From Solirubrobacterales bacterium (GTDB lineage: Bacteria; Actinomycetota; Thermoleophilia; Solirubrobacterales; 70-9): a stretch of 37,585 nucleotides of DNA. The DNA is taken from positions 1 through 37,585 of the forward strand of contig JAJTCK010000013.1 of the NCBI GenBank assembly GCA_021323175.1, given 5' to 3'. Position numbers and translations under genes: made by a program. The notes under the pieces were generated by a model. That model worked only from the letters and a program-made list of their open reading frames with translations. It ran no database searches and was not told the origin of the DNA. This document shows positions 6,327-37,582 of this stretch, one piece after another; the first letter of the stretch is position 1, and every line of letters begins with the position of its first letter.

Positions 6327-7994
6327 TCACAGCCCGATGATCGCGGGCCCGAGGTCCTCTATGGACCCCGGGTCCTCCCCGTAGGCCCGCTCGTAGGCTT
6401 CGCGCTCGTCTTCGTCGACGAGGGCCAGGAGCAGCTCTTCGCGACTCGACCCGAATTCGCACGCGGCGCGATCGAGCGCCTCCAGGGTGCGGTCCTGGAG
6501 GAAGCCGCCGATCCCGCCGCTCTGAGGGTCCTCGCGCTCTGCGTCGCATGGATCCTGGATCGCGATCGTCTCGCGCTCGGAGTCGGCGAAAGCGACGCCG
6601 TATCCCGCCAGGCCGATCACAGCCGCCACGGCGCATGCCAGGACCGGCTGCGGTCTCGCGCCGCGCCCCGCGAGCAGCAGGATCCCCGCAAGCAGCGCCA
6701 TGGCGGCGGTCGCGACGAAGGCGAACCGGAATGCCGACCTGACCGCGCCGGTGACGACGTCGTCCAGGCGGGTCTCGAGCTGCGCCAGCTCGTCGCGGTC
6801 CTCGCCCTCGAAGTCCGATTGGACTTCGTCGAACGCGTCGGAGAGTGCGGACCTGGGATCGTCGGTGTCGAGGCCAGCGAACAGGCTCGGGGCGATGTCG
6901 AACTTGTCCTCCGGATCCAGGCTGGCGTCGAGCAGGGCCGCCGTCCCCTGCAGCCGGGCCTCGGAGATGGTGTCGTCGAGGCTGTCGGCGACTATCGGCG
7001 CGATCACCGCCAGTGCGACCGCGATGCCGGCGTGCCTGATCGAGAGCACCCGGGCCACATCTCGCCGGGTGCGCTCGGGAAGCAGCTCACCGGCCAGTGC
7101 GGGAAGGGCCATGCCCATCCCCGCTCCTGCCAGCAGCTGCGGCACGACGGTGAACCAGGCCGAATCGCCGGGCAGCAAAGCGAGGCATCCCACGCCGCCC
7201 GCGACCAGCAGGCAGCCCGCGACGCCTCGCGTCTCGGGGTCGCCCGGGATCCTGGCTGCGGCGATCGCCGCCACCGGCAGGACCGACACCGCCAGCGCGG
7301 CTGCGAGGGGGTCCACACTCCACCCGGCCACGAGCAGCAGGACGACTAAAAAGATCACTGCCGTCAGCGCGGCCGAGAGCAAGGCGAGCGCGAGCGCCGG
7401 CCGCAGGCGCAGGGGAGACCCGCAGGTGCGGTCGGCGCCTTCGGGGCGCCCAGCCCGCCATCGCCGGCGCTCCCTCAGGGCGGCGGTGGCGGCGACCGCG
7501 GCTCCCGGCAGGATCAGCGGCAACTGCGCCAGGAAGATCGCCCGCCAGTCGAACAGCTCCGTCAGCACGCCGCCCAGCGCAGGCCCGATCGCAGCCCCGA
7601 AGATGGACGCGGCGAACCACACGCGCCTGCCCGGGCCGTCGGCGCCCCCGTCGAGCAGTGAGAACGAACCGACCAGTGTCGCTGCGCCGCCCACGGCCTG
7701 CACTCCGCGCATCCAGAGCAGGGAGCCCATCGAGTCGGCCAGCCCGCAGGCCAGTGAGGCGGCGCCGAACAGCGCGATCCCGCCAGCAGCGATGGCCGCG
7801 CCGCCGATGCGCCGGGACAGCACCGCCGCGAGCGGCAGGGCGATGGCCATGACGGCCGTGTACACGCCCAGGACGAGCGCGACGCCCTCGACGGTCGTGT
7901 CCAGCTCCGAGAGGATCGACGGCAGGCCCAGGGTGACGATCGACGCGTCGGCCAGGGCCAGGGCCGCCGCCGCGGCGATCGCCGTCCGTCGCAT
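6327..7994 (-). CDS. MFS transporter (DHA2-like) with extra C-terminal domain
   Basis: The 555-residue protein is a major facilitator with about a dozen or more hydrophobic helices. The first part (ADASIVTLGLPSIL, then MRGVQAVGGAATLVG and AIGPALGGVL motif C) is typical of DHA2 drug exporters. Two features are unusual. A long acidic soluble segment (about residues 330-415) separates two C-terminal helices, and the last 85 residues after the final helix form a separate charged domain (GGIGGFLQDRTLEALDRAAC, then FGSSREELLLAL). ATG 7994 is chosen because TAGCGT ends 7 nt before it; a GTG lies three codons upstream. It follows the MMPL gene by 66 bp on the same strand, suggesting a joint export locus. 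Substrate unknown. Confidence 0.8.
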   Translation of the reverse strand: MRRTAIAAAAALALADASIVTLGLPSILSELDTTVEGVALVLGVYTAVMAIALPLAAVLSRRIGGAAIAAGGIALFGAASLACGLADSMGSLLWMRGVQAVGGAATLVGSFSLLDGGADGPGRRVWFAASIFGAAIGPALGGVLTELFDWRAIFLAQLPLILPGAAVAATAALRERRRWRAGRPEGADRTCGSPLRLRPALALALLSAALTAVIFLVVLLLVAGWSVDPLAAALAVSVLPVAAIAAARIPGDPETRGVAGCLLVAGGVGCLALLPGDSAWFTVVPQLLAGAGMGMALPALAGELLPERTRRDVARVLSIRHAGIAVALAVIAPIVADSLDDTISEARLQGTAALLDASLDPEDKFDIAPSLFAGLDTDDPRSALSDAFDEVQSDFEGEDRDELAQLETRLDDVVTGAVRSAFRFAFVATAAMALLAGILLLAGRGARPQPVLACAVAAVIGLAGYGVAFADSERETIAIQDPCDAEREDPQSGGIGGFLQDRTLEALDRAACEFGSSREELLLALVDEDEREAYERAYGEDPGSIEDLGPAIIGL

Positions 7995-8001
7995 CCCGGC
8001 C

Positions 8002-32563: not shown

Positions 32564-33259
32564 TCAAGCGGGCGTGACCGCGGTGGCGGCGGTCCCGTCC
32601 AGGGCGTCGAGGGCACGGCCCAGGGACATCGCCACGCAGGTGAAGATCGGGGTGTCGCGCAGGGTATAGGCGCTGGACTCGGTGGTCCGGAGCTCCTGCA
32701 CCAGGTCCAGGAACTCGCCGGGCTCGTCGCCCTCGAACGAGACCACGAACTCCTGGTCGTCGAGACCGAACGAGTACGTCGTGTTGATCGCGATCTCGGG
32801 ATAGCGCCGGCCGACCTCGACGTGGGACTTCATGATCCGCTGGCGCTCCTCGAGCGGCAGCAGATACCAGTCGCGTTTCTTGTCGAAGGGGTAGACGAAC
32901 AGGAACTTGCGCTCGGAGACCGCGATCTCGGGCCGCACCGATTCCTCCGAGTATGGCGAGGGCTTCGTCATCGCCAGGTAGGAGTAGGGCGTATCGGTCC
33001 ACCGCGCCAGCCCGCTCTGGCCGAGCACGACGTGGAAGGTGTGCAAATCCTCCAGCCGGGGGCTCTGGCTGAGCAGCATCAAGTCGGTGTCGCCCCGCGT
33101 GCCCACCGTCGAATACGCTCGCAGCGACCGGTCCTCGGCGAAGTCATCGCAGGCGGCCTGAAACTCGGCCTTGTCGCGGGCGCGCTCTGAGGCGCTGCGC
33201 CGCCTCCAGGCGGGATCGAGCTTGAAGAACGTGAACTTGACGAAGGTGCGCTGGGGCAC
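32564..33259 (-). CDS. hemQ: Coproheme decarboxylase, chlorite-dismutase-like (HemQ/ChdC)
   Basis: A 231-residue member of the chlorite dismutase family. In actinobacteria it decarboxylates coproheme III to heme b, the last step of the coproporphyrin-dependent pathway. WYLLPLEERQRIMKSHVEVGRRYPEIAINTTYSFGLDDQEFVVSFE holds the proximal heme His146, and TPYSYLAMTKPSPYS contains the conserved tyrosines. ELRTTESSAYTLRDTPIF closes the domain. GTG 33259 is chosen because family homology starts there and TACCCT ends 7 nt upstream; longer frames are unsupported. It diverges from a membrane protein whose start appears to overlap it by 14 bp. No other heme genes are present. Confidence 0.9.
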   Translation of the reverse strand: MPQRTFVKFTFFKLDPAWRRRSASERARDKAEFQAACDDFAEDRSLRAYSTVGTRGDTDLMLLSQSPRLEDLHTFHVVLGQSGLARWTDTPYSYLAMTKPSPYSEESVRPEIAVSERKFLFVYPFDKKRDWYLLPLEERQRIMKSHVEVGRRYPEIAINTTYSFGLDDQEFVVSFEGDEPGEFLDLVQELRTTESSAYTLRDTPIFTCVAMSLGRALDALDGTAATAVTPA

Positions 33260-35234
33260 GATTACAAGGGTAGTCGCGGCGGGGCTCGCGACTGGTGCTG
33301 TCGCGTGCAGCGGCGCGATGGCCCAGGGGCCCGGGCCGCCCGAGAGCGAGCGAATTGCGCAGGCGGGTGGAGGCAAGGCTGGTGTAGACCGGGTCGGCGT
33401 CGAGCCACCCGACGTGCCGAGCGTCACCGTGGCGATCCTCCCCCGGCGAACCGAACCCGAGGACCTCGAGCGCTTCGAGGGCCTGGCGCCCGGGACGATG
33501 AGCGCGGGACTCTCGCGCGTCACGCCCGCCCAGACGTTCCTCGACATGGGCGCCGGGAACCGGGTCTTCACCTCGCTCTACGGTCCCGAGCTGCCGGTGA
33601 TGACCCGCTTCCGGAAGCGCGTGCCCGGCTGGCCGCTGATCGTCGAGCGAGCGGATGATGCGCCGGCGCAGATCGTTCCCGGCCTGCTGGGATCGGAGGT
33701 CCGCGAGGCTGGCATCCCGATCCGGGCCGACTCGCTGCTGACGACCCCGGCCCTGATGGCCGCCGACGGGCAGGGCCGCGTCGGGCGCGCACGTCCTTGG
33801 CAGTGCCTCGATCGCGCCTGCGACGGGGTGGCGGTCGTGCCGGCGGCGCTGGGACAGCTGCAGCCGCTGGTGAACAGGCTGCGCGGCGATGACCTCCTGA
33901 TCGCGATGGAGCGGCCCCCGCCGGGAGAGCAGGAGGTGCTGGCGATCGGCCTCGCGGGTGATGGCTACGAGGGCAACCTCACTTCCGACACCACCCGGAC
34001 TCCGGGCCTGGCGCTGACGACCGACATCGCCCCCACGATCCTCGACCGGCTGGGGCTCCCGGTCCCAGGAGAGATGGCGGGACATTCCATTCGCTCCGAA
34101 GGGGACCGTGACCCCGCGGCGGTCCAGGAGCGCTCGGAGCGGATGAAAGTGGTCTCCAAGCGGCGCGCCCCGGTGGTGCTACGCAACCTGATGATTTGGT
34201 TTGCGCTCGCCATCCTGGTGGCGGCTCTTTCACGCGGGCGCCTGGCTCGTCCGGCGTTTGCCCTCGCAGGCCTGTCGGCCGTGTACCTGCCCGCCATGCT
34301 GCTGGTCGGCGCCGCGCTCGGACCGGACGAGACGCTGGCGGAGCGGCTGGTCGTCGGGATCGGCGCGCCGGCGCTGGCGGCGGCCAGCATCGCGCTGGTC
34401 CGGGGCTGGGCCGCGCTGGCGGTGGCGTGCGGCGTGACTCTGGGCGCCTACATGGTGGACGTGGCGGCGGGATCGCCGCTGACGGCCCAATCGATCCTGG
34501 GGCCGAATCCGGGGCTCGGCGTTCGCTTCTTCGGGATCGGCAACGAGCTCGAGAGCATCCTCGCCGTGGTGATCCCCATCGGCACCGGAGCCGCGCTGGC
34601 GGCGTTCGCGGCCCGCGGCCATGAGCCGGGCATTCGCGTGAGCGCGCTGGCGTTCCTGGGCGCCGGGGCCGTGACGGCGCTGCTATTCGCCGCGGGGCAG
34701 TTCGGCGCGGATGTGGGAGCGGCGATCGTGCTCCCCGCCGGCGCGGCGATCGCGACGCTGGCCGTTCCGGGTATGGCTGAGGTCGTGCGCGAGCGCCGGT
34801 GGCTGCTCCTGCTGCTCGCCGCGCCGGTCCTGGGGCTTGCGGTGCTGTTCGCGATCGACCTGGCGTTCGGGGGCGACGCCCACCTGAGCCGCTCGGTGCT
34901 CGACGCCGGCGGGGCCGGGGAGCTGGCGGACGTGGTAGAGCGCCGGCTGCGGCTGGCCGCGCGAAGCTTCAACAGCGGGGTCAAGACGGTGCTGTTCTGG
35001 TTCTGCGTCGCGTCGGTGATCGTCGCGGTCCTGGGTCGCAGCCGGATTCTGCGGTGGCTCGCCCAAGCGCCGTACGCGAGGGCGGGGTTCGCCGGCGCCG
35101 CGGCCGCCACGGCCCTCGGCGTGGTCGCCAACGACTCGGCGGCGACGTTCTTCACCGTGGGCACGATCGCGCTGCTCACGTGCCTGGCGTATGCCTGGAG
35201 CCAGACGCGCCCGGGTGACGGTTCGCACTCATAG
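33246..35234 (+). CDS. Polytopic membrane protein with degenerate alkaline-phosphatase-like domain
   Basis: About 662 residues. The N-terminus has a hydrophobic signal (VVAAGLATGAVACSGAMAQ, with a possible lipobox Cys). A soluble domain of roughly 280 residues ends in LALTTDIAPTILDRLGLPVPGEMAGHSI, a sequence typical of the alkaline phosphatase/sulfatase superfamily. The expected first metal Asp and the nucleophile region are not recognisable (VTVAILPRRTEPEDLERF), so this looks catalytically dead. About ten transmembrane helices follow from residue 315. GTG 33246 is the only start that keeps the signal, although it overlaps hemQ head to head and lacks a ribosome-binding site; ATG 33318 is the alternative. 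Function unknown; envelope assembly is a guess. Confidence 0.7.
   Translation: MRWGTITRVVAAGLATGAVACSGAMAQGPGPPESERIAQAGGGKAGVDRVGVEPPDVPSVTVAILPRRTEPEDLERFEGLAPGTMSAGLSRVTPAQTFLDMGAGNRVFTSLYGPELPVMTRFRKRVPGWPLIVERADDAPAQIVPGLLGSEVREAGIPIRADSLLTTPALMAADGQGRVGRARPWQCLDRACDGVAVVPAALGQLQPLVNRLRGDDLLIAMERPPPGEQEVLAIGLAGDGYEGNLTSDTTRTPGLALTTDIAPTILDRLGLPVPGEMAGHSIRSEGDRDPAAVQERSERMKVVSKRRAPVVLRNLMIWFALAILVAALSRGRLARPAFALAGLSAVYLPAMLLVGAALGPDETLAERLVVGIGAPALAAASIALVRGWAALAVACGVTLGAYMVDVAAGSPLTAQSILGPNPGLGVRFFGIGNELESILAVVIPIGTGAALAAFAARGHEPGIRVSALAFLGAGAVTALLFAAGQFGADVGAAIVLPAGAAIATLAVPGMAEVVRERRWLLLLLAAPVLGLAVLFAIDLAFGGDAHLSRSVLDAGGAGELADVVERRLRLAARSFNSGVKTVLFWFCVASVIVAVLGRSRILRWLAQAPYARAGFAGAAAATALGVVANDSAATFFTVGTIALLTCLAYAWSQTRPGDGSHS
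33267..33272 (-). promoter_or_regulatory. -10 element for leaderless hemQ
   Basis: TACCCT on the minus strand ends 7 nt before GTG 33259. It lies inside the 5' end of the divergent membrane protein gene. Confidence 0.5.
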
Positions 35235-35263: not shown

Positions 35264-37582
35264 ATGCGCATCGCCCTCGTTTCTCCTTATTCCTGGACCT
35301 ACCAGGGGGGCGTCAACAGGCACGTAGAGGCGCTGGCGGAGCAGTTCATCGCGCGGGGGGACCACGTCCGCGTGCTCGCGCCGTTCGACCCGCCCGACGC
35401 GCTCACCCGTCGCCTGCACGGCTCCGCTGCGCCTGAGGTGCGGGAGCAGCCGGGCTACCTGGTCCCGCTCGGGCGCACGATCGGCATCGGCTCGAACGGG
35501 GCGGTATCGAACATCTCGCCGTTCCCGGAGGGCCTCGCGAGGATGCGCCGCGAGCTCCGCACCGGCGACTACGACGTGGTCCATGTCCACGAGCCGCCCG
35601 CCCCACTGATCAGCTGGGACGCCAACACCTTCCGCGGAGCGCCGGTCGTCGGCACCTTCCATGCGTATGCGACGAAGCCGGTGCCCAACCACATCGCCTC
35701 TCTGCTGGGCGCGCGCCGCATCTTCAACCAGCTCTCCGCGCGCATTGCGGTATCGGAGGCCGCCGCCTGGACCGGCCGCCGCTGGTTCGGCGGCGACTAC
35801 ACGATCGTCCCGAACGGGGTCGACGTGGAGGCCGCGCACGACGAGCCCAAGCTGCATTCGGACGACCTCCGCCTGCTGTTCGTCGGCCGCGCCGAGGAGC
35901 GCAAGGGCCTGCCGGTCCTGCTGGCGGCCTTCCAGGCACTGGTGGACCACGTGCCGGCACGCTTGACCGTCATCGGCGCCGACCCCCAGGACGTCCACCG
36001 GTCGATCGCCGACCCGGACGTCGCCGCTCGCGTCGACGTGCGCGGCAAGGTCTCTGACGCCGAGCTCTGGGCCGCCCTGGGCGAGGCCGACCTGCTGTGC
36101 GCGCCGTCGCTCTCTGGTGAGAGCTTCGGAATGGTCTTGATCGAGGCGATGGCGTCGGGGACGCCGCCGGTCGCCTCGGCCATCGCCGGCTACAACGACG
36201 TCGTCACCGACGGCGTGGACGGTGTCCTGGTTCCTCCCGCCGATCCCCAGGCGCTCGGCGAGGAGCTGCTTTCCCTGGCTCACGAGCCGGAGCGCCGCGC
36301 GAAGCTCGGCGAGGCCGGGCGCGATAGCGCCCAGCGCTACGCCTGGCCGCGGGTCGCCGACGAGGTGACCGAGGTCTACGAGCGGGCCGTCCGCCCGCTC
36401 ACGGTTCCGCTCGACGGCCTGCAGGCCGTCGCTCGACGCGCCGGCATGGTTCGGCTGGATGGCGGCCCCCGCCGCCCCGCCCGGCGCCTGGCCTCGCTCG
36501 ATCCTGAGCCCGTCACCAGCGGTCCCCGCCGTCTCGCTCGCCGGCTTGGGCTCGGCATCGCGGGCGTCCTCGGGGTAGGGCTCACTTACCTGGCCGCGCG
36601 CAAGATAGGCGTGGACAAGGTCGCCCACAGCGTCATCGGCTCGGACCTGACCTGGGTCCTGATCGCGCTGGCGCTGATGATCGGCGCAATGTTCGCCCGC
36701 GCCGCCTCGTGGGTCGCGATCGTCCGGGCCGCCCTTCCCGGGCGCACGGTGCGCCGCCGCGACGTCACCTCGGCCACGATGATCGGCGTGCTGATGTCGG
36801 CGACCCTCCCGGCCCGCCTCGGTGAGCCGGCGCGCGCCACGGTCCTGGCCAGACGGGTCGGACGCATGCGCGAGACCTTCGCGGTACTGATCGGGACGCT
36901 GGTCAGCCAGACCGTGCTGAACATCGTCGCGCTCGGGATCCTGGGCGCGATCATCGTCGGCACCACCGATCTCTTCCACCGCAGCACCGAGAAGGTCTTC
37001 CTGTTCTCGCTGGCGCCGTTGGCGCTGCTGGTCGCGGTGCTGCTGGCGCCGATGCTGGTGCGCTCGCACGGCGAGGGACGCGTCGCCCGCATCGCCGCGT
37101 CCGCCCGACGGTCGCTTCAGCAGGTCCGTACCGGGCTCGTTGTGTTCAAGGACCCACGCCGCGGCCCGTTCGCGGCCGTCGCCCAGCTGGGTGCCTGGTT
37201 CCTGCAGCTGCTCGCGTGCTGGGCGCTGTTCGCGGCGCTCGGGCTGGACCACGAGGTCGGCATCGGCGCCGCGGCCGCAGTCCTGTTCGCGGTCAACGTC
37301 ACGGCGGTGATCCCGGCGACGCCGTCGAACATCGGTGTGTTCCAGTTCGCCACGGTGAGCGTCCTGACCGGCGGCTTCGGAGTGGGAGCCGCTGACGCGC
37401 TCGCATACGGCGTGATCCTCCAGGCTGTCGAGATCGCGACCGCCGTCGGCCTGGGCCTGCCGGCCCTGGTCCGCGAGGGCGTCACCTGGAAGGACATGCG
37501 CCTGCGCGCCATCTCGGCGGCGCCGGTTCGCCTGCAGCCTCGCAGCGAGCGCGAGAGCGCCCGCGACGCGATCTCGGCCTAG
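35264..37582 (+). CDS. Fusion: family 4 glycosyltransferase (PimA-like) with LPG-synthase/flippase-like membrane domain
   Basis: A 772-residue two-part protein. Residues 1-385 form a GT-B glycosyltransferase: MRIALVSPYSWTYQGGVNRHVEALAEQF, DVVHVHEPPAPLISW, GTFHAY and NGVDV, with the donor site LFVGRAEERKGL and SLSGESFGMVLIEAMASGTPPVAS carrying the EX7E-type glutamates. This half resembles actinobacterial phosphatidylinositol mannosyltransferase PimA. After a basic linker (about 390-430) come roughly eight transmembrane helices with SATLPARLGEPARATVLARR and AVIPATPSNIGVFQFATV, the signatures of the LPG_synthase_TM/UPF0104 (YbhN/AglD) family. It could glycosylate a lipid and assist its transfer across the membrane. 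The frame is continuous, so the fusion is not an assembly join visible here. Confidence 0.88.
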   Translation: MRIALVSPYSWTYQGGVNRHVEALAEQFIARGDHVRVLAPFDPPDALTRRLHGSAAPEVREQPGYLVPLGRTIGIGSNGAVSNISPFPEGLARMRRELRTGDYDVVHVHEPPAPLISWDANTFRGAPVVGTFHAYATKPVPNHIASLLGARRIFNQLSARIAVSEAAAWTGRRWFGGDYTIVPNGVDVEAAHDEPKLHSDDLRLLFVGRAEERKGLPVLLAAFQALVDHVPARLTVIGADPQDVHRSIADPDVAARVDVRGKVSDAELWAALGEADLLCAPSLSGESFGMVLIEAMASGTPPVASAIAGYNDVVTDGVDGVLVPPADPQALGEELLSLAHEPERRAKLGEAGRDSAQRYAWPRVADEVTEVYERAVRPLTVPLDGLQAVARRAGMVRLDGGPRRPARRLASLDPEPVTSGPRRLARRLGLGIAGVLGVGLTYLAARKIGVDKVAHSVIGSDLTWVLIALALMIGAMFARAASWVAIVRAALPGRTVRRRDVTSATMIGVLMSATLPARLGEPARATVLARRVGRMRETFAVLIGTLVSQTVLNIVALGILGAIIVGTTDLFHRSTEKVFLFSLAPLALLVAVLLAPMLVRSHGEGRVARIAASARRSLQQVRTGLVVFKDPRRGPFAAVAQLGAWFLQLLACWALFAALGLDHEVGIGAAAAVLFAVNVTAVIPATPSNIGVFQFATVSVLTGGFGVGAADALAYGVILQAVEIATAVGLGLPALVREGVTWKDMRLRAISAAPVRLQPRSERESARDAISA

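What the first reader, a model, noticed from the sequence alone, without database searches (positions are those of the whole stretch)
35264..37582. Glycosyltransferase fused in one chain to an LPG-synthase/YbhN-like membrane domain
A PimA-like GT4 (1-385) is joined by a basic linker to about eight helices of the UPF0104/LPG_synthase_TM family. Separate proteins of these two kinds are common, and their fusion suggests coupling of lipid glycosylation to membrane transfer or modification. It sits directly after a polytopic protein with a dead phosphatase-like domain.
Basis: partly seen in the sequence, partly recalled or inferred. Interest (0 to 1): 0.5.

Follow-up and report, generated by a model that had tools for sequence, protein, structure and literature searches.

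The report
Glycolipid-making enzyme fused to flippase domain
A bacterial enzyme closely related to the one that adds mannose to phosphatidylinositol in mycobacteria is joined, in one protein shared by most of its bacterial order, to a membrane domain of a family of lipid flippases; it probably makes a sugar-bearing membrane lipid and carries it to the outer face, a step whose machinery is still unknown in mycobacteria.

Summary
The fusion is real. One 772-aa frame (35264-37582) holds a PimA-type GT4 glycosyltransferase (aa 1-377), a basic linker and an LPG_synthase_TM (UPF0104, MprF-flippase family) domain (aa 433-729). It is not a sequencing join: it reads in one frame in 115 of 151 sampled genomes of the order, including 9 of 10 single-contig genomes. 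In related families of the class, GT4 and membrane domain are separate neighbouring genes (18 of 30 loci read). One such family has a GT4-deacetylase-membrane-protein operon like GpgSDF and HexSDF; another fuses the GT4 to PAP2_3 next to the membrane gene. The GT keeps PimA's catalytic residues, the window's genome has inositol-lipid synthesis genes, and one Solirubrobacter strain is reported to make phosphatidylinositol mannosides. Best reading: an MprF-like synthase-flippase for a mannosylated inositol lipid. Coupling is well supported; sugar, lipid and flipping are inferred. Against a general link: outside the class 79 of 80 genomes with a PimA-type GT have no recognisable relative of the membrane domain, and some class families keep the GT without it. 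New variant of a known kind (AglD, MprF, GpgS/GpgF). The upstream gene's 'dead phosphatase' label rests on a weak signature.

The parts
35264..36394 (+). PimA-type GT4 glycosyltransferase domain, aa 1-377
   Evidence: Pfam; PimA 4n9w E 2.2e-54, next families from 2e-19; model Z 33.9 to 2gej over 338 residues
35660..35662 (+). His133, equivalent of PimA His118
   Evidence: alignment; role of His118 from PMC9883506 (passages)
36119..36145 (+). E286-S287-F288 ... E294, equivalents of PimA E274-S275-F276 ... E282 (donor sugar and ribose contacts)
   Evidence: PimA roles from PMC9883506 (passages)
36395..36553 (+). basic linker, about aa 378-430
   Evidence: net charge +8 over residues 377-430
36560..37450 (+). 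LPG_synthase_TM (UPF0104) membrane domain, aa 433-729
   Evidence: Pfam PF03706 111.6 bits; TIGR00374 'flippase-like' below cut-off, 32.4 of 43.2 bits
36809..36826 (+). P-A-R-L-G-E motif aa 516-521 (G520 and E521 invariant in 29 of 29 rows)
   Evidence: alignment A2
37313..37345 (+). P-A-T-P-S-N-I-G-V-F-Q motif aa 684-694 (P684 and Q694 invariant in 29 of 29 rows)
   Evidence: alignment A2
33171..35234 (+). upstream polytopic protein, conserved neighbour of the fusion (true start probably later: the listed start lies over the divergent chlorite-dismutase-family gene)

Best explanation
A bifunctional glycolipid synthase-flippase built like MprF but with a sugar transferase as its synthase. The N-terminal PimA-type GT4 domain, at the cytoplasmic membrane face, transfers a sugar (most likely mannose from GDP-mannose) to an inositol phospholipid. 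The covalently attached UPF0104 domain then takes the product and moves it to the outer leaflet. Shown: one chain, conserved; PimA fold and catalytic residues; membership of the flippase-domain family; recurrent neighbourhood of separate GT4 and UPF0104 genes. Inferred: donor sugar, acceptor lipid, flipping, direct hand-over.
For: One frame in 115 of 151 order genomes (hand count), 9 of 10 single-contig ones. GT closest to PimA by sequence, fold and residues G16, H133, R209, K214, E286, S287, F288, E294. Separate GT4 then UPF0104 genes, same strand, in 18 of 30 class loci. GT4-deacetylase-UPF0104 operons in 4 loci. PAP2_3-GT4 fusion overlapping a UPF0104 gene in G249, and the same order in G156. 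PAP2_3 also sits beside PI-phosphate synthase and inositol-3-phosphate synthase in the own genome, which ties the GT to inositol lipid. Solirubrobacter CPCC 204708 is reported to contain PI and PIM (PMC10722151, passages). Precedents: GpgSDF (PMC12713373, passages), HexSDF (PMC10128005, passages), AglD C-terminal domain as MprF-type flippase (PMC5898192, passages).
Against: No assay here. Families f6 and f8 of the class keep the GT, but 22 of 24 of their genomes show no such membrane domain; G109 in the order has the GT without it (L083). Outside the class 0 of 19 GT loci have it nearby and 79 of 80 GT-bearing genomes have none. The acyltransferase family of PatA is absent in 14 of 14 genomes tested, so the pathway is not the mycobacterial one in full. 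PI-phosphate synthase is also present in order genomes without the fusion (G025, G052, G058, G128), so co-occurrence does not discriminate; G121 and G129 carry the GT without it. R209 is Q in 7 of 23 fused rows. The species description in PMC10722151 omits PI and PIM. GpgF and HexF flippase activity is itself unproven, and HexF is not needed for synthesis of its lipid. The membrane fold could not be compared.
Confidence: 0.5

Rival explanations
1. Synthase-flippase as above, but for another lipid: the GT glycosylates phosphatidylglycerol, diacylglycerol or a polyprenyl phosphate, as GpgS or HexS do with their lipids, and the UPF0104 domain flips that product.
For: The same membrane family pairs with other GT4 subfamilies: a GpgS-like GT (158.8 bits to GlcN_PG_synth, cut-off 480) overlaps a UPF0104 gene in G085, and the TM of that pair groups with the fused TM at 100/100. 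P0001 itself scores 65.5 bits on the GlcN_PG_synth model. The guanine-contact equivalent D265 is not conserved (D in 10 of 23).
Against: The fused GT is far closer to PimA than to any other solved GT4, and a sister family fuses it to PAP2_3, found next to PI-phosphate synthase elsewhere.
Confidence: 0.25
2. The membrane domain does not flip: it is an anchor or lipid-presenting scaffold that holds the GT at the membrane and regulates it.
For: PimA-type GTs work without it in most relatives; HexF is not needed for HNHDRG synthesis and gpgF mutants still make GlcN-PG; the basic linker could serve membrane binding.
Against: The polytopic domain keeps invariant residues over 29 divergent relatives (W483, G508, G520, E521, G544, W645, Q648, P684, Q694, G731), more than an anchor needs; [quoted passage not shown]
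Confidence: 0.2
3. A sequencing or assembly join of two separate genes.
For: Contig ends fall in or near the linker in 7 genomes (G045, G050, G077, G090, G101, G110, G116).
Against: One frame in 115 of 151 order genomes, including 9 of 10 single-contig assemblies, and 17 aligned relatives share conserved sequence on both sides of and into the join.
Confidence: 0.01

Closest known systems
PimA (phosphatidylinositol mannosyltransferase, GT4; PDB 2gej, 4n9w)
   Same: About 34-37% identity over the GT domain, same fold (Z 33.9), same catalytic and donor-contact residues
   Different: PimA has no membrane domain; outside the class it can sit in the order PI synthase, PatA, PimA (L210) with no UPF0104 gene nearby
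GpgSDF of Pseudomonas aeruginosa and HexSDF of Clostridioides difficile
   Same: Glycolipid GT (GpgS is GT4) plus a UPF0104/MprF-like predicted flippase encoded together (PMC12713373, PMC10128005, passages)
   Different: Separate genes with a deacetylase between them, different GTs and lipids; the fusion has no deacetylase
AglD (archaeal N-glycosylation)
   Same: GT at the N-terminus fused to a C-terminal UPF0104 domain (PMC5898192, passages)
   Different: AglD's GT is of family GT2 (recalled), not GT4; archaeal protein glycosylation
MprF
   Same: One chain with a lipid-modifying synthase and a flippase domain of the same Pfam family
   Different: The synthase transfers an amino acid from tRNA, and the flippase domain is N-terminal (PMC5898192, passages)

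Membership tests
PimA / PIM1 synthase | Sequence and fold closest to PimA among GT4 enzymes of known structure | tested here: met
PimA / PIM1 synthase | Residues equivalent to G16, H118, R196, K202, E274, E282 | tested here: met
   (all present in P0001; R196 position is Q in 7 of 23 fused rows)
PimA / PIM1 synthase | PI synthase, PatA, PimA gene neighbourhood | tested here: not met
   window neighbours are a chlorite-dismutase-family gene and the polytopic gene; PatA family absent in 14 of 14
PimA / PIM1 synthase | Transfers mannose from GDP-mannose to PI | not testable with these tools
   needs an enzyme assay
LPG_synthase_TM / UPF0104 flippase-domain family | Match above the curated Pfam cut-off | tested here: met
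   111.6 bits vs 33.4; 17 of 17 relatives. The NCBIfam TIGR00374 cut-off was not reached (32.4 of 43.2)
LPG_synthase_TM / UPF0104 flippase-domain family | MprF flippase-domain fold | tested here: inconclusive
   sequence profile found no solved chain; whole-chain fold search filled by the GT; single-sequence model of the domain poor, pLDDT 47
LPG_synthase_TM / UPF0104 flippase-domain family | Lipid translocation | not testable with these tools
   needs a leaflet or proteoliposome assay
AglD-type GT-UPF0104 fusion | N-terminal GT plus C-terminal UPF0104 in one chain | tested here: met
AglD-type GT-UPF0104 fusion | GT2 catalytic domain (recalled feature) | tested here: not met
   GT4-type families only; so not an AglD, only built alike
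MprF | C-terminal aminoacyl-transferase (DUF2156-type) domain | tested here: not met
   no such domain in P0001
GpgSDF/HexSDF operon | Deacetylase gene in the same operon | tested here: inconclusive
   no deacetylase upstream in the window; downstream is cut off and neighbours in other order loci were clustered but not all annotated; present in sister family f9

The most novel reading that the evidence does not exclude
The fusion makes and flips a phosphatidylinositol mannoside in one protein. It would be the first genetic lead to a PIM flippase, and would make the UPF0104 family the candidate pool for the mycobacterial PIM flippase, which a 2025 paper calls uncharacterized.
Probability: 0.3. 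Interest if true: 0.7.

Novelty: new variant of a known kind. Interest (0 to 1): 0.45.

Why it matters
A PimA-type enzyme bound to a flippase-family domain would put synthesis and export of an inositol glycolipid in one chain. It offers a system, in an order with cultured soil members (Solirubrobacter), for testing whether UPF0104 proteins flip such lipids, a step called uncharacterized in mycobacteria (PMC12041525, passages). Sister families carry the same two parts as neighbouring genes, with a deacetylase between them, or with a PAP2_3-GT4 fusion; this turns a single odd protein into a set of related arrangements that predict one another's function.

Tried and rejected
Sequencing join: rejected. 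Second GT in the inositol locus (L124, L126) as the real PimA: unlikely; its PimA catalytic positions are mostly lost in the alignment and the L124 protein carries a PHP domain. Co-occurrence of the fusion with PI-phosphate synthase (135 of 151) or inositol-3-phosphate synthase (132 of 151) as a test of the acceptor: not discriminating, since both are nearly universal in the order. Origin of the fusion from the neighbouring genes of sister families: the GT tree joins the two clades only at 88/28, and the TM tree leaves it open. PDB search with the TM sequence (only a chance hit, E 0.53) or its 29-row profile (none). In the whole-chain fold search no MprF row was listed; the GT filled the list. 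DNA hairpin at the linker as cause of contig ends: one window at its start is among the more stable ones of the gene, the rest of the linker is not. Papers: the searches listed no description of a GT4-UPF0104 fusion; most subscription papers are not held and no architecture database was available. The fusion was searched for only within the phylum, apart from one pattern-based scan of genome contigs; other phyla were not tested further.

Full report
WHAT IS THERE. The frame 35264-37582 (+) encodes 772 aa from ATG to stop without interruption. Pfam finds Glyco_transf_4 (15-189), Glycos_transf_1 (190-354) and LPG_synthase_TM (433-729, 111.6 bits against a cut-off of 33.4). NCBIfam's flippase-like model TIGR00374 also matches but below its cut-off (32.4 of 43.2). 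Between them lies a linker with net charge +8 (residues 377-430). The window is a whole contig (G000:C131, 37585 bp), so the region downstream of the gene cannot be read in this genome. Relatives fetched from a named collection are mostly titled Solirubrobacterales, Thermoleophilia or Actinomycetota MAGs, one only 'uncultured bacterium'.

NOT AN ARTEFACT. In the family sample 41 of 50 genomes carry the full-length fusion (hand count). In the order sample 115 of 151 have both parts in one frame (hand count): 111 as one uninterrupted alignment, 2 with a stop codon inside the aligned range (G086, G106) and 2 as two alignments in frames of one length (G095, G100), taken here as one frame. Of the other 36, 18 have partial or broken matches, 4 only weak matches and 14 none at E <= 1e-30. 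Nine of ten single-contig genomes have it; G025 lacks it. Seven broken genes have contig ends in or near the linker (G045, G050, G077, G090, G101, G110, G116); the contig lengths show this for six, and G045 rests on coordinates alone. G109 is a true exception: its GT is a 440-aa gene followed by a lyase-type gene (L083), and its GT sits inside the fused clade, so the membrane part was lost there.

THE ENZYME PART IS PimA-LIKE. Against solved structures the GT domain matches PimA at E 2.2e-54; the next family follows at 2e-19. The AlphaFold model (17 sequences, pLDDT 68.9, pTM 0.57) matches PimA best with Foldseek and with VIA-align (2gej, Z 33.9, rmsd 2.9, 338 residues). The positions that PMC9883506 (passages) names for PimA, G16, H118, R196, K202, E274, S275, F276 and E282, are G16, H133, R209, K214, E286, S287, F288 and E294 here. 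In 23 fused rows all are invariant except R209 (R in 16, Q in 7). The guanine contact D253 corresponds to D265, which varies (D in 10 of 23).

THE MEMBRANE PART. An alignment of 29 fused, neighbouring and stand-alone relatives keeps W483, G508, G520, E521, G544, W645, Q648, P684, Q694 and G731, among others, in every row (renumbered to P0001). Its fold could not be compared with MprF: the sequence profile finds no solved chain, the whole-chain search is filled by the GT, and a single-sequence model of the domain is poor. Its place in the flippase-domain family therefore rests on Pfam and on the published argument that UPF0104 proteins are homologous to the MprF flippase domain (PMC5898192, passages).

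SPLIT RELATIVES SIDE BY SIDE. In 71 genomes of the same class outside the order, 46 have a relative of the membrane part. Thirty of these loci were read: in 18 it lies on the same strand after a GT4 relative. In 15 the two are direct neighbours. In three (L149, L154, L166) about 800 bp separate them; in G165 and G200 (L171, L172), and in two further loci (L179, L182), the intervening gene was read; the four are one protein cluster, and Pfam identifies the L172 copy as a polysaccharide deacetylase. That is the GpgSDF/HexSDF layout (PMC12713373, PMC10128005, passages). In family f5, G249 has an LPG_synthase_TM gene overlapping a PAP2_3-GT4 fusion, and G156 the same order. Within the order itself a second, GpgS-like GT4 overlaps a UPF0104 gene by 4 bp (G085), and the membrane protein of that pair groups with the fused membrane domains at 100/100. 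So GT4 and UPF0104 are coupled repeatedly, with more than one GT4 subfamily.

RESULTS AGAINST A STRICT COUPLING. In families f6 and f8, 22 of 24 genomes tested show no such membrane protein, although the GT is present in members read. Outside the class 0 of 19 GT loci have it within the roughly 1.5 kb read on each side. Of 80 GT-bearing genomes searched (of 110), one has a relative, on a different contig from its GT. The class search listed no fusion outside the order, though its row list was cut. Trees give one origin for the fused GT clade with one loss; its sister relation to the neighbouring-gene clade is weak (88/28), and the TM tree does not settle whether the fused membrane domain came from that neighbour.

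ACCEPTOR AND PATHWAY. The window's genome has an inositol locus: PAP2_3, a CDP-alcohol transferase scoring 136.9 bits on the PI-phosphate synthase model (cut-off 170), and inositol-3-phosphate synthase (556.8 bits, cut-off 638) (L127). PAP2_3 beside PI-phosphate synthase there, and fused to the PimA-like GT in f5, is the best hint that the acceptor is an inositol lipid; but PAP2_3 is a broad family with several copies per genome. PI-phosphate synthase relatives occur in 135 of 151 and inositol-3-phosphate synthase in 132 of 151 order genomes, all below the curated cut-offs, including fusion-less ones, so presence alone proves nothing. The PatA family is absent in 14 of 14 genomes tested. Solirubrobacter CPCC 204708 is reported to contain PI and PIM in its results text, while its species description omits both (PMC10722151, passages).

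MOST LIKELY MECHANISM. The GT works on the cytoplasmic face, sugar is passed to an inositol lipid, and the attached UPF0104 domain hands the product to the outer leaflet, as MprF does with aminoacyl lipids. Shown: architecture, conservation, PimA fold and residues, family membership, gene coupling. Inferred: mannose, inositol lipid, flipping.

KNOWN OR NEW. Separate GT plus UPF0104 pairs (Gpg, Hex) and GT fused to UPF0104 (AglD, whose GT class I recall as GT2) are published. A PimA-type GT4 fused to UPF0104 was not found in the held papers. I rate it a new variant of a known kind. Its interest lies in the open PIM flippase question, stated in PMC12041525 (passages) and PMC3229680 (passages).

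THE UPSTREAM GENE. The 687-aa polytopic protein 29 bp upstream has a same-strand relative upstream of the fusion in 44 of 52 order genomes with enough sequence (hand count, at least 60 bits, spacing from a 52-bp overlap to 662 bp). None was labelled beside the GT in 22 class loci outside the order (single-sequence query). It matches no Pfam family above cut-off. Only a short C-terminal 'DIAPTIL' stretch recalls the alkaline phosphatase superfamily. It may belong to the same pathway; its role is unknown.

Noticed in passing
window 33171-35234 and A3 relatives: Polytopic family with conserved GPNPxLGxRFxGIGNELE and FGADVGAA motifs, no Pfam family above cut-off, directly upstream of the fusion in most order genomes.
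   Followed up: partly
L089 9006-12088, L090 9753-12838: PAP2_3-GT4 fusion overlapping an LPG_synthase_TM gene (L089) or in the same order with it (L090) in family f5: another fusion of the same GT type, pointing to PI-phosphate metabolism.
   Followed up: partly
L171, L172, L179, L182: GT4, polysaccharide deacetylase and UPF0104 genes with overlapping or touching ends, a GpgSDF/HexSDF-like operon in actinobacteria.
   Followed up: partly
L124 3964-6147; L125, L126, L130, L131, L133: Protein with a GT4 and a C-terminal PHP domain (domains read in L124) next to inositol-3-phosphate synthase; the PimA catalytic positions are mostly lost in the five rows aligned.
   Followed up: partly
L136 7784-10146; L128: GpgS-like GT4 overlapping a UPF0104 gene by 4 bp in family f2; its membrane protein groups with the fused membrane domains.
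   Followed up: partly
linker of the fusion in G045, G050, G077, G090, G101, G110, G116: Contig ends cluster in or near the linker, perhaps because of high-GC low-complexity sequence.
   Followed up: partly
L087 1-8060 (G029:C14): Second GT-like partial copy and a repeated upstream-gene piece next to runs of N, so a possible scaffold join or duplication in that MAG.
   Followed up: no
window 7001-8000: Strong AT skew (0.328) and the window's highest GC (0.747) in one kilobase.
   Followed up: no
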